A DNA stretch of 6,456 nt. Source: Chloroflexota bacterium (lineage in GTDB: Bacteria; Chloroflexota; UBA6077; JADZDV01). Location: positions 1 to 6,456 of the forward strand of contig JADZDV010000080.1 of assembly GCA_020850915.1 (NCBI GenBank), in the 5' to 3' direction. The notes below the pieces were generated by a model that worked only from the letters and a program-made list of their open reading frames with translations, was not told the origin of the DNA and did not search any database. This document shows positions 3,585 through 6,456 of the stretch, in pieces; position 1 is the stretch's first letter, and the number at the start of each line of letters is the position of its first letter. The translations under genes and the position numbers were made by a program.

Positions 3585-4534
3585 GCAATGCCCGTCCTGG
3601 CGACGGGAAGCCCCTGACGCCGGTCGAGGCCCGCCGCCTGGCGCGCCTGATCACCCGGGTCGAGCGCGGCGAGACCAGCCTGCCCGAGCTGCTCGGCGAA
3701 CGCGGCCGTCGACCGCGAGACGTCTATACGATCGGCGTGACCGGACCACCCGGCGCGGGTAAGAGCACCCTGGTGGACAAGCTGATCGGCGCGGCACGTG
3801 CCGCCGGGCTGACCGTCGGCGTGGGAGCGGTCGATCCCTCCAGCCCGTTCACGGGCGGCGCGTTGCTGGGCGACCGGGTGCGCATGCTGGCGCACTCGCA
3901 CGACCGGGGCGTCTTCGTCCGGAGCATGGCCGCGCGGCGGGCGCTGGGCGGGCTGGCGCCCGCGACGCGGGACGCCCTGCGACTGATCGGCGCGTTCGGC
4001 TTCGGCCTCGCCATGGTCGAGACCGTGGGGGTCGGCCAGAGTGAACTGGACGTAGTACGCGCAGTGGACACTGTGCTCGTCATCACCGTGCCCGGTCTGG
4101 GTGACGCCGTCCAGACGCTCAAGGCGGGTCTGCTGGAGATCGCGGACATCTTCGTCGTCAACATGGCGGACCGCCCCGGCGCCGACCGGACCGCGGCCGA
4201 GCTGTGCGCCATGCAGTCGCTCGCGCCGCGGGCGCGCGGCTGGACCGCGCCAGTCGTCCAGACCGTCGCCACGGAGCCGCGCGGCATCGACGAGCTGTGG
4301 GCCGCGATCGAGCGCCACCGCGCGTACCTGGAGCAATCCGGCGAAGGCGCCCGGCGCCGAGAAGAGCGGCGCGAGGAAGAGACCCTCGAGCTGGTCCAGC
4401 AGATGCTTCGAGCCCGCCTGGAAACGCGCCTGCGCGAGGAGCCCGAGTTGGCGGAAACGCTGGAGCAGGCAGCACAAGGCAGGGTCACGGCGCGCGAGGC
4501 GGCGGAGAGGATCGTGCGAGAGCTGAAAAGCTAG
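3581..4534 (+). CDS. meaB: MeaB/ArgK-family GTPase, methylmalonyl-CoA mutase chaperone
   Basis: The 317-residue length matches MeaB. Motifs in order: Walker A GPPGAGKST at 55-63, the family signature DPSSPFTGGALLGDR at 85-99, the switch region ETVGVGQSE at 147-155, and the G4 position NMAD at 194-197 followed by RPGAD. MeaB uses GTP hydrolysis to gate loading of adenosylcobalamin into methylmalonyl-CoA mutase and to protect that enzyme from inactivation. A charged helical tail (about 255-317) is consistent with the family's dimerisation segment. The G4 motif has Met where most GTPases have Lys (NKxD). The ATG overlaps the carbonic anhydrase stop by 4 bp with only a weak ribosome site, as expected for coupled translation. 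The mutase itself is not in the window. Confidence 0.95.
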   Translation: MSNARPGDGKPLTPVEARRLARLITRVERGETSLPELLGERGRRPRDVYTIGVTGPPGAGKSTLVDKLIGAARAAGLTVGVGAVDPSSPFTGGALLGDRVRMLAHSHDRGVFVRSMAARRALGGLAPATRDALRLIGAFGFGLAMVETVGVGQSELDVVRAVDTVLVITVPGLGDAVQTLKAGLLEIADIFVVNMADRPGADRTAAELCAMQSLAPRARGWTAPVVQTVATEPRGIDELWAAIERHRAYLEQSGEGARRREERREEETLELVQQMLRARLETRLREEPELAETLEQAAQGRVTAREAAERIVRELKS

Positions 4535-4921: not shown

Positions 4922-4944
4922 TTGGCCCCAAGGTGCGCTATGAT
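4922..4944 (+). promoter_or_regulatory. Candidate promoter of the RAMA-methyltransferase pair
   Basis: TATGAT at 4939-4944 is a good -10 match and would place transcription initiation near 4951, just at the first AAGATC repeat and about 46 nt before the ATG at 4997. No clear -35 hexamer lies 16-19 bp upstream, so activator dependence or a false match are both possible. A small dyad TTGG-CC-CCAA (4922-4931) lies just upstream of the -10 and could be an operator. Confidence 0.4.
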
Positions 4945-4951
4945 AGGCGCA

Positions 4952-4974
4952 AAGATCTAAAGATCCCAAGATCT
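4952..4974. repeat. Three tandem AAGATCY repeats at 8-bp spacing (RGATCY sites)
   Basis: AAGATC begins at 4952, 4960 and 4968. Each repeat holds an RGATCY hexamer: AGATCT at 4953-4958, AGATCC at 4961-4966 and AGATCT at 4969-4974. The array lies between the -10-like TATGAT (4939-4944) and the Shine-Dalgarno at 4987, so it would fall at the transcription start and in the early leader. The BglII/BstYI endonuclease family, to which the gene at 5956-6456 belongs, recognises AGATCT or RGATCY. Elsewhere in the window RGATCY sites are scattered singly (581, 1575, 2046, 3427, 4730, 5591, 6007, 6192). That the array is a regulatory site is an inference. Confidence 0.75.
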
Positions 4975-4996
4975 GGCAGAGCTTATGGAGGGGGGT

Positions 4997-5272
4997 ATGG
5001 CCCGGACCACTGGAACAACGTCGCTTGCGGACCTTATCCAGCGTGGACTGCTCCGAAGCGGGGAGCCCCTCGTACTCAGGCGTCGATCGGCGCCGCCGAT
5101 CGAGGGGAAGCTGGAGGGGGATGGGTCAATCACGATAGGTGGCATCTCATATTCAAGCCCCTCCACCGCGGCAAGGCATGTCCTTACTGGACACCCGATT
5201 GATGGGTGGCTCAGGTGGCGGGTGCCACGACTTGGAGACCGCAGTCTTGCTGAGCTTCGGGAGGGGAAGTGA
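4997..5272 (+). CDS. Small stand-alone RAMA-domain protein of the restriction-modification locus
   Basis: The 91-residue protein consists almost wholly of a RAMA-like (restriction enzyme adenine methylase associated) fold. It has SLADLIQRGLL near 9-19 with GEPL at 22-25, a strand pair around DGSITIGG (42-49), SYSSPSTAA at 51-59, and the closing GW..W signature at 70-74. RAMA domains usually occur fused to methylases or nucleases and are predicted to contact modified or target DNA. Here the domain is free and encoded directly before the methyltransferase, sharing a GTGA overlap. The start at 4997 was preferred over the in-frame ATG at 4985 because GGAGG ends 5 nt before it, whereas 4985 lacks a ribosome site. 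The role as methyl-DNA reader, specificity aid or autoregulator is inferred. Composition is less GC-rich than in the left cluster. Confidence 0.78.
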   Translation: MARTTGTTSLADLIQRGLLRSGEPLVLRRRSAPPIEGKLEGDGSITIGGISYSSPSTAARHVLTGHPIDGWLRWRVPRLGDRSLAELREGK

Positions 5273-5967
5273 GCGATGAACGAAAGACCGCGCTGGATGA
5301 CCTGGCCAGTACGCTGACGGTCGATAAGCTCGGCGGCCAGCTATTTGGCACGGTGCTAGCCGATCCGCCGTGGCGCTTCATGAATCGCACGGGGAAGGTC
5401 GCCCCTGAGCACTGGCGCTTGTCCCGTTACGATACGTTGTCGTGGGACGAGATCGCCGCTATGCCCGTAGCAGATGTCATGACCAAGCAGTCGCACTGCT
5501 ACCTTTGGGTTCCAAACGCATTGCTCGCCGAGGGTCTGCGCGTCCTGGAAGCCTGGGGCTTTATGTATAAGACCATGCTCATCTGGCACAAGATCCGAAA
5601 AGATGGGGGGAGCGACGGCCGAGGCGTCGGTTTCTACTTTCGTAATGTCACTGAGCCAGTGTTGTTCGGCGTTCGAGGTAAGCTCCGAACGCTTGACCCA
5701 GGCCGCGCCCAAGTGAACCTTGTCGCCACGCAGAAGAGAGAACACAGCCGCAAGCCAGACGAGTTGTATCCGATTATCGAAGCCTGCTCGTCAGGCCCGT
5801 ACTTGGAACTGTTCGCGCGCTACCCTCGACCTGGGTGGACTGCCTGGGGTAATGAGGCAGCTCCTGACGTGACACCGAGAGGTCGGCAGTACCCAGCGTA
5901 TGGAGCAGGGAGCAACGGGCGCGCTGCTGCCGCGGCTTTTCCGCGGCCACTCGAGCTAGGGCTCTGA
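5269..5967 (+). CDS. MT-A70 family adenine-N6 DNA methyltransferase
   Basis: The 232-residue protein carries the catalytic DPPW at 32-35, preceded by a beta strand (FGTVLA). Other MT-A70 features are YDTLSWDEI at 54-62, HCYLWVPN at 76-83, an EAWGF at 94-98 followed by IWHK, RNVTEPVLFG at 125-134, and the C-terminal motif with REHSRKPDELY (157-167), then YLELFAR (178-184) and GWTAWGNE (189-196). The family transfers methyl from S-adenosylmethionine to adenine N6; in bacteria and phages it usually acts on DNA. Its target here is unknown, but the neighbouring endonuclease suggests a GATC-core site. The start is GTG at 5269, overlapping the RAMA stop, with GGAGG 4 nt upstream. The last 35 or so residues are low-complexity (Ala run at 219-223). 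The stop overlaps the convergent endonuclease gene by 12 bp. Confidence 0.93.
   Translation: MSDERKTALDDLASTLTVDKLGGQLFGTVLADPPWRFMNRTGKVAPEHWRLSRYDTLSWDEIAAMPVADVMTKQSHCYLWVPNALLAEGLRVLEAWGFMYKTMLIWHKIRKDGGSDGRGVGFYFRNVTEPVLFGVRGKLRTLDPGRAQVNLVATQKREHSRKPDELYPIIEACSSGPYLELFARYPRPGWTAWGNEAAPDVTPRGRQYPAYGAGSNGRAAAAAFPRPLELGL
5929..5947. terminator. Perfect 7-bp GC hairpin at the convergent gene ends
   Basis: GCCGCGG (5929-5935) and CCGCGGC (5941-5947) flank a 5-nt loop CTTTT. The hairpin lies inside the end of the methyltransferase gene and 8 bp past the endonuclease stop at 5956-5958 when read leftward. Neither strand has a U-tract after the stem, so classical intrinsic termination is doubtful; it may serve as a transcript end or an mRNA stabiliser for the leftward gene. 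Confidence 0.4.
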
Positions 5968-6456
5968 TGGCTCGGTCGGTCCCTCCGGCACACCCTCGAG
6001 CGCGACGGATCCAGCGTAGGGAGGTAATTCAGGGTCACCCGGTTGAGGCTGGTAGCATTTCTCGGTGATGGCTATCACGAGAACGGGACATCCTCCACCG
6101 TCACCCCTCTCAAGCCGCGGAACCAATTTCTCCATGTTAGTCGTCGTCGTGGTGCCAAGCAGTACGATGCCATGGCCGCGGTTATCGTACCGGATCCTCC
6201 CAGCCGCCTCCGCGAGATAGTTAGCTGCCCACTTTGTACGCTCTTGGTGACGTGTGATGATGACGCCTACGTCGATGACGGCAGCCTCATGCAATGCTCT
6301 GAAGTTGGCAAGGTCCCTGTCCAGGTTACCGTCTTTCGCGTTCCATTCAACGTCCAGCGCTATTCTGCCTCGCACGTTGTCAACCATGTGACCTTCTGAC
6401 AGAAATCTCTGCGTGCGCTCAATGGGCCGCGTCTCACCGGCATCTCTATACGGAGA
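5956..6456 (-). CDS. BglII/BstYI-family type II restriction endonuclease, N-terminus beyond right edge
   Basis: The leftward frame has no stop from the right edge to TAG at 5956-5958, giving 166 visible codons. The Met codon at 6387 lies inside the conserved region, so it is not a credible start; the 23 codons before it (with YRDAGETRPIERTQRF) are in frame and the true start is outside. Recognisable family blocks are MVDNVRGRIALDVEWN, NLDRDLANFR, the IDVGVIITR strand, a GTTTTTNMEKL stretch and GGGCPVLVIAI. A PD-(D/E)xK-type active site can be proposed: Asp at 6379-6381, then Asp at 6352-6354 and Glu at 6346-6348, matching the spacing Asp84/Glu93/Gln95 that I recall for BglII. Family members cut RGATCY or AGATCT. 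The tail after GGGCPVLV is Pro/Glu-rich. It converges on the methyltransferase gene, and its promoter is not visible. Confidence 0.87.
   Translation of the reverse strand, partial: SPYRDAGETRPIERTQRFLSEGHMVDNVRGRIALDVEWNAKDGNLDRDLANFRALHEAAVIDVGVIITRHQERTKWAANYLAEAAGRIRYDNRGHGIVLLGTTTTTNMEKLVPRLERGDGGGCPVLVIAITEKCYQPQPGDPELPPYAGSVALEGVPEGPTEPSEP

What the first reader, a model, noticed from the sequence alone, without database searches (positions are those of the whole stretch)
4952..4974. Tandem array of the system's probable own recognition sites in its leader/promoter
Three AAGATCY units with an exact 8-bp period sit between a -10-like box and the ribosome site of the RAMA-methyltransferase pair. 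Every unit is an RGATCY hexamer, the site class cut by the BglII/BstYI family, whose member is encoded at 5956-6456. By hand count the window has 11 RGATCY sites, and three of them lie within these 22 bp. If the methyltransferase modifies the GATC adenine, promoter occupancy could depend on methylation, giving a feedback loop that sets methyltransferase level before restriction. The 8-bp spacing puts the sites on different faces of the helix, which favours a linear array of small binders over a helically phased operator.
Basis: partly seen in the sequence, partly recalled or inferred. Interest (0 to 1): 0.82.

Follow-up and report, generated by a model that had tools for sequence, protein, structure and literature searches.

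The report
Conserved AGATCT array before RAMA–methyltransferase genes
A short run of repeated AGATCT-type sites, spaced exactly eight bases apart, sits just in front of a small DNA-binding protein gene and its DNA methyltransferase gene; the same run recurs in the related gene pairs that were found, but not where the small protein is missing, which points to a self-regulating switch for a bacterial restriction-modification system.

Summary
The window carries three RGATCY units at an exact 8-bp period (4953-4974), 22 bp before the likely RAMA start codon (4997). All 8 RAMA + MT-A70 loci found, the window included, carry 2-4 RGATCY units at exactly 8 bp, 13-39 bp before the RAMA start (24 units, 19 of them AGATCT), although the 80 bp upstream of the array are no more alike than shuffled sequence. 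Controls: of 30 MT-A70 loci examined in one bacterial order, 5 of 5 with RAMA have the array and 0 of 25 without. None of 80 viral MT-A70 loci and none of 18 more distant RAMA loci without MT-A70 has an 8-bp pair. So the array tracks the RAMA gene when it is paired with MT-A70, not the methyltransferase alone or the endonuclease (3 of 7 array-bearing draft genomes give no BglII-family match). Best explanation: the operator of an autoregulated RAMA-MT-A70 operon, bound by RAMA, probably sensitive to adenine methylation of the units. Binding, sign of regulation, methylation sensitivity and the enzymes' recognition sequence are inferred. Published RAMA structures contact only the DNA backbone, the main evidence against. 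New variant of a known kind.

The parts
4953..4974 (+). Array of three RGATCY units (AGATCT, AGATCC, AGATCT), 8-bp period
   Evidence: counterparts in L001-L005, L131, L134
4939..4944 (+). TATGAT, -10-like box 8 bp before the first AGATCT; L134 has TATCAT 9 bp before its array; no promoter match on the + strand in the scan, so promoter unproven
4987..4994 (+). GGAGGGGG, likely ribosome-binding site of the RAMA gene
   Evidence: sequence
4997..5272 (+). RAMA gene, 91 aa (PF18755, 51.8 bits for the 95-aa reading from 4985); proposed array-binding controller
5269..5967 (+). MT-A70 family methyltransferase gene (PF05063, 103.7 bits), GTG start, overlaps the end of RAMA by 4 bp
5956..6456 (-). BglII-family endonuclease gene (PF09195, 78.2 bits), convergent, 5' end cut off by the window end

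Best explanation
The array is the operator of an autoregulated RAMA-MT-A70 operon in a BglII-family restriction-modification system. The stand-alone RAMA protein, encoded first in the operon, binds side by side on the AGATCT-type units near the transcription start and lowers transcription of its own gene and the methyltransferase gene. Because each unit is probably the methyltransferase's own target, binding is probably set by adenine methylation of the units, so the switch reads the product of the enzyme it controls. Shown: the array is a conserved cis element whose presence goes with RAMA in MT-A70 loci. Inferred, in falling order of confidence: RAMA is the binder; the effect is negative; methylation tunes it; the units equal the recognition sequence.
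For: 8 of 8 RAMA + MT-A70 loci have 2-4 units at exactly 8 bp, 13-39 bp before the RAMA start; all 16 unit-to-unit steps are 8 bp. The 80 bp upstream of the array are at shuffled-level identity (0.463 against 0.455) while the RAMA proteins are 42-63% identical, so the array is kept by selection. An agnostic scan of 150 bp upstream finds 8-bp repeats built on AGATC/GATCT in 8 of 8. In one order, 5 of 5 RAMA+ and 0 of 25 RAMA- MT-A70 loci have an array; 16 of those 25 have a BglII-family match (Fisher 7e-6, not corrected for kinship). 0 of 80 viral MT-A70 loci, 48 with a BglII-family match, have an 8-bp pair. 0 of 18 RAMA loci without an MT-A70 match have one. The predicted RAMA fold matches the CcrM DNA-binding domain (TM 0.78) and MPND. 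A natural RAMA-MT-A70 fusion exists (P0109). In L023 the whole unit, array included, lies between perfect 48-bp direct repeats.
Against: RAMA in CcrM and MPND is reported to contact only the DNA backbone, and 6mA did not change MPND binding in one study (PMC9963953 passages), so sequence- or methyl-specific binding by RAMA has no direct structural precedent. No promoter is established: only the window and L134 have a TATNAT box 8-9 bp before the array, and the one scan match in the window is on the - strand. The recognition sequence is unproven: RGATCY is near expectation in G003 and G005 (0.97, 1.01) and 0.88 in G004, AGATCT pooled 116 found for 144 expected. G003 has a second triple array upstream of dnaK, which a purely local operator does not explain. 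Only 8 loci, 6 of them in one order. Of the 25 RAMA-less cellular controls, 11 show an in-frame stop inside the matched MT-A70 stretch and may be decayed; the other 14 have no array either. The 18 RAMA controls are distant (mostly 28-46% identical).
Confidence: 0.6

Rival explanations
1. No reader protein: methylation of the units by MT-A70 directly changes RNA polymerase binding to the promoter, as described for CfrBI, AhdI and LlaDII; RAMA only helps methylation.
For: Precedents stated in a review (PMC12707154 passages). In the window and L134 the units follow a -10-like box directly.
Against: 25 cellular and 80 viral MT-A70 loci without RAMA have no array, so the methyltransferase alone does not explain its presence. 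A direct effect on polymerase would not need an exact 8-bp period (inference).
Confidence: 0.15
2. The methyltransferase (or a RAMA-MT-A70 complex in which RAMA is just a subunit) binds the array and represses itself, as helix-turn-helix methyltransferases such as those of the Ecl18kI and SsoII systems do.
For: Natural RAMA-MT-A70 fusion P0109; autorepressing methyltransferases are known (PMC3874152 passage).
Against: MT-A70 80% identical to the window's over most of its length (L200), and 84% in a shorter piece (L227), occurs without RAMA and without array, so MT-A70 can stand without RAMA and on its own does not bring an array.
Confidence: 0.15
3. The repeat works in RNA: palindromic AGAUCU units form leader hairpins.
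For: Of four leaders folded, the four-unit leaders of L003 and L004 fold better than shuffles (z -2.7 and -3.6).
Against: The three-unit window leader and the two-unit L001 leader fold no better than shuffles (z +0.9 and +0.1). No Rfam match at gathering score. The hexamer itself is kept. Palindromic repeats give hairpins for free.
Confidence: 0.04
4. The array serves the endonuclease: a cluster of cut sites or a decoy that ties promoter integrity to methylation.
For: AGATCT is the BglII site (recalled); a PF09195 gene lies convergent in the window and a match lies convergent in L002-L004 and L134.
Against: Three of 7 draft genomes with the array give no PF09195 match, and L135 shows none beside the array. 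64 RAMA-less loci with a BglII-family match (16 cellular, 48 viral) have no array.
Confidence: 0.04
5. Chance or inherited coincidence.
For: The loci share ancestry; 8 loci only.
Against: Triple arrays occur in 3 of 396 genomes. Flanks are diverged to shuffled level.
Confidence: 0.01

Closest known systems
Promoter-methylation-regulated type II systems (CfrBI, AhdI, LlaDII; PMC12707154 passages)
   Same: Sites in the promoter/leader of the methyltransferase gene, giving possible feedback from the enzyme's product.
   Different: Here a dense array of 2-4 units at a fixed 8-bp period, always with a separate RAMA gene first in the operon; methylation and effect untested.
Controller (C) protein systems, e.g. 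Kpn2I whose controller acts as an elongation roadblock (PMC6237814 passages)
   Same: A small protein gene in the restriction-modification locus, with its presumed operator near or after its own transcription start.
   Different: C proteins are helix-turn-helix proteins and their C-boxes are not arrays of the system's recognition site (both recalled); RAMA has the CcrM/MPND fold.
Omega repressor of toxin-antitoxin plasmids
   Same: Small first-gene protein that binds repeats in its own promoter, with affinity depending on number and orientation of repeats (PMC3874152 passage).
   Different: Ribbon-helix-helix fold (same passage); 7-bp repeats that are not a restriction-type palindrome (recalled).
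CcrM C-terminal RAMA domain
   Same: Same fold (Foldseek TM 0.78), DNA binding.
   Different: In CcrM it is fused to the enzyme and called nonspecific (PMC6787082, start of abstract); here stand-alone with a conserved site array.

Membership tests
RAMA domain (PF18755) | Pfam score above curated cut-off; CcrM/MPND fold | tested here: met
   51.8 bits against 35.2; Foldseek 6pbd, 7ydt, 7ydw at E up to 0.001
MT-A70 methyltransferase (PF05063) | Pfam score above cut-off; DPPW motif | tested here: met
   103.7 bits against 23.9; ADPPW in the translation
BglII endonuclease family (PF09195) | Pfam score above cut-off | tested here: met
   78.2 bits against 26, profile positions 71-162 only, because the window ends inside the gene
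BglII endonuclease family (PF09195) | Cuts AGATCT or RGATCY | not testable with these tools
   Composition tests did not discriminate
C-protein-controlled systems | Helix-turn-helix controller | tested here: not met
   Predicted fold is RAMA-like; the 4 confident Foldseek matches are CcrM and MPND
C-protein-controlled systems | Operator repeats at the controller's own promoter | tested here: inconclusive
   Array position fits in 8 of 8 loci; promoter and binding not shown
Promoter-methylation regulation (CfrBI/LlaDII type) | System's recognition site inside the methyltransferase promoter | tested here: inconclusive
   Sites present; recognition sequence and promoter not established
Promoter-methylation regulation (CfrBI/LlaDII type) | Methylation changes methyltransferase expression | not testable with these tools
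   Needs expression data

The most novel reading that the evidence does not exclude
Stand-alone RAMA proteins paired with MT-A70 are a new class of restriction-modification controller: methylation readers that coat a phased array of the system's own target sites in their operon leader and so set methyltransferase level by reading the mark it makes, including in units that have lost their endonuclease.
Probability: 0.42. Interest if true: 0.82.

Novelty: new variant of a known kind. Interest (0 to 1): 0.68.

Why it matters
RAMA has been proposed as an N6-methyladenine reader, but the structural study seen here in passages reports no base contacts and no methyl preference. A natural, minimal pairing of a stand-alone RAMA protein with a conserved array of candidate target sites would let one test directly whether RAMA reads sequence or methylation. 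If the model holds, it also adds a controller type without a helix-turn-helix to restriction-modification regulation.

Tried and rejected
Viral contigs: the RAMA alignment found no relative there, so viral sets serve only as MT-A70 controls. An exact AGATCT triple search of viral contigs gave 3 contigs (L017-L019) without a RAMA, MT-A70 or BglII-family match in the stretches held; L018 has a terminase gene. They are unexplained.

Recognition-site avoidance: in stretches of G003, G004 and G005, AGATCT is mildly low (116 found, 144 expected; 14th lowest palindrome), while RGATCY is 0.97, 0.88 and 1.01 of expectation. In the 80 viral loci AGATCT is the lowest of 64 palindromes (0.54), but it is low both with and without a BglII-family match (0.58 and 0.47, third lowest in each), so this says nothing about the system's specificity. 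Not used as evidence.

Background spacing count (7 RGATCY pairs at 8 bp in 723 kb, no triples) is biased upward, because several stretches were chosen on contigs that one search had listed with an 8-bp pair; not used.

Number of origins: the MT-A70 tree (53 rows: 8 RAMA+, 25 RAMA-, 20 of the 80 viral) needs 5 changes of the RAMA+array label on the best tree, but well-supported branches force only 1, and the bootstrap had not settled; repeated joint gain or loss is suggested, not shown.

RNA hairpin and Rfam: no general support. PDB sequence search of the endonuclease piece found nothing.

Literature: searches listed no title or abstract start that describes a RAMA controller or an AGATCT array in a restriction-modification leader. 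Passages only were seen of PMC9963953, PMC11037411, PMC3874152, PMC6237814, PMC12707154 and PMC12839542; other listed papers were seen as listing only. Most subscription papers are not held.

Full report
What is in the window. Three AAGATCY units stand at 4952-4974 with exact 8-bp steps; Tandem Repeats Finder reports the same array. They follow a TATGAT box (4939-4944) by 8 bp and end 22 bp before the RAMA start codon. Homologous RAMA proteins show that the gene most likely starts at ATG 4997, with GGAGGGGG before it, not at the upstream ATG 4985. The RAMA gene (PF18755) overlaps an MT-A70 methyltransferase gene (PF05063) by 4 bp, and a BglII-family endonuclease gene (PF09195) runs convergent and is cut by the window end. 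Upstream lie ordinary chromosomal genes: MeaB GTPase, a hexapeptide-repeat protein and a PASTA kinase. No whole genome is held for the window.

Is it conserved? A RAMA alignment found 5 loci in genome contigs, and genome searches added two more RAMA + MT-A70 loci, L131 and L134. With the window this makes 8, and all 8 have the array: window 3 units, L001 2, L002 3, L003 4, L004 4, L005 2, L131 3, L134 3. Of the 24 units, 19 are AGATCT, three GGATCT and two AGATCC; none is GGATCC. All 16 steps are 8 bp. The two spacer bases vary (AA six times, GT four times, and CA, AC, TT, GC, GG, CG once each). The array ends 13-39 bp before the RAMA start. The 80 bp upstream of the arrays have mean pairwise identity 0.463 against 0.455 for shuffles, while the RAMA proteins are 42-63% identical. 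So the sites and their period are kept while the surroundings have been randomised, which fits protein recognition of the hexamer.

What does the array go with? In 298 genomes of one order, a search for MT-A70 at E up to 1e-70 gave 33 matches, 30 with loci. Five of these carry RAMA and all five have the array. Twenty-five lack RAMA, and none has two RGATCY sites within 30 bp, although 16 of them have a BglII-family match and their MT-A70 is 64-84% identical to the window's. All 25 have at least 150 bp before the MT-A70 start. Eleven of the 25 show an in-frame stop inside the matched stretch, so some may be decayed; the other 14 have no array either. Fisher's exact test for 5 of 5 against 0 of 25 gives 7e-6, without correction for kinship. 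The five RAMA+ genomes were already known from RAMA searches, so their frequency in the sample says nothing; the contrast does not depend on it. None of 80 viral MT-A70 loci (the best 80 of 105; 48 with a BglII-family match, none with a RAMA match) has an 8-bp pair; 14 neighbouring RGATCY pairs at other spacings up to 24 bp were seen, three of them at 7 bp. None of 18 RAMA loci without an MT-A70 match has an 8-bp pair: 16 found and examined, and L132 and L133; these are distant relatives. L132/L137 is informative: its RAMA stands behind a D12-class methyltransferase and a gene without a Pfam match, and has no array.

An agnostic scan for any 6-mer repeated 6-14 bp apart finds 8-bp AGATC/GATCT repeats in 8 of 8 RAMA + MT-A70 leaders. 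In the 25 RAMA-less leaders it finds no palindromic repeat; three of them have an 8-bp repeat of some other 6-mer.

Background rarity. A triple at this spacing is found in 3 of 396 genomes of the phylum of G001; one is the G002 RAMA locus, the other two are made of GGATC units. In the seven genomes of the array loci, single 8-bp pairs occur elsewhere too, but only one other triple is listed: in G003 a second triple lies 142 bp before an Hsp70 (dnaK) gene. It may be chance or a second target.

The endonuclease. PF09195 is found in 4 of the 7 genomes and missed in G001, G005 and G767. In L005 a short piece of similarity remains. L135 (G767) shows no match within the 9 kb held; one neighbouring gene there is a phosphatidylglycerol lysyltransferase-like gene. 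In G001 the contig ends about 630 bp after the MT-A70 match, and all are drafts, so absence is not proven. The array nevertheless persists in all three, so it seems not to depend on the endonuclease.

Mobility. In L023 (the contig of L002) two perfect 48-bp direct repeats, 3960-4007 and 5944-5991, enclose endonuclease, MT-A70, RAMA and the array, as expected of a mobile unit that carries its own operator. The four other loci in that call show no such flanking pair.

How it most likely works. RAMA is a 91-residue protein whose predicted model (mean pLDDT 84; the five models range from 62 to 84) has the fold of the CcrM C-terminal DNA-binding domain and of MPND. Since MT-A70 of this kind occurs without RAMA and then without array, RAMA is best seen as an added regulator with its own operator rather than an essential enzyme subunit. 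The position before the ribosome site fits repression or a transcription roadblock, the latter known for the Kpn2I controller (PMC6237814 passages). If the units are the methyltransferase's targets, binding could follow their methylation, as promoter methylation affects the methyltransferase gene in the CfrBI, AhdI and LlaDII systems (PMC12707154 passages).

What speaks against it. CcrM and MPND RAMA domains are reported to touch only the DNA backbone, and one study saw no 6mA preference (PMC9963953 passages); an earlier report of 6mA binding is cited there and in PMC11037411 (passages). Specificity would have to come from residues of this subfamily, from packing, or from the methyl group. The recognition sequence of the enzymes is not known, and composition tests were uninformative. 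The promoter is unproven, and the only promoter-like match in the window's leader is on the other strand and overlaps the array. Six of the 8 loci lie in one order.

Verdict. The idea of a RAMA-bound operator is strengthened by the presence/absence contrast; the methylation feedback remains a good but untested hypothesis; the link to delaying restriction is weakened by loci that keep the array without a detectable endonuclease.

Noticed in passing
L020:4066-4087 (genome G003): A second triple, GGATCTTCAGATCTTCAGATCT at 8-bp period, 142 bp upstream of an Hsp70 (dnaK) gene in a genome that also carries the RAMA array; possible second target of the same binder, or chance.
   Followed up: partly
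L023:3960-4007 and 5944-5991: Perfect 48-bp direct repeats flank the whole endonuclease-MT-A70-RAMA-array unit, like an insertion with a long target duplication.
   Followed up: partly
L047-L126 (viral contigs): 48 of the 80 viral contigs kept with this MT-A70 family also have a BglII-family endonuclease match in the stretch held (tblastn E up to 0.01), so the pair seems common on viral sequence.
   Followed up: partly
L137:1985-4230 (minus strand): A different RAMA-associated locus: D12-class methyltransferase, a gene with no Pfam match (possible endonuclease), then RAMA; no AGATCT array.
   Followed up: partly
P0109: Natural fusion of a RAMA domain to MT-A70 in one 297-residue protein.
   Followed up: no
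L018:930-959: Four AGATCT units at 8-bp period in a viral contig with a terminase gene and no RAMA or MT-A70 match in the 4.8 kb held; unexplained.
   Followed up: partly
L136:1026-1125: A near-perfect 20-bp tandem repeat (GTGATCGTTTCGAGTGCGGG, about 5 copies) that ends about 175 bp upstream of the RAMA array in this locus.
   Followed up: no
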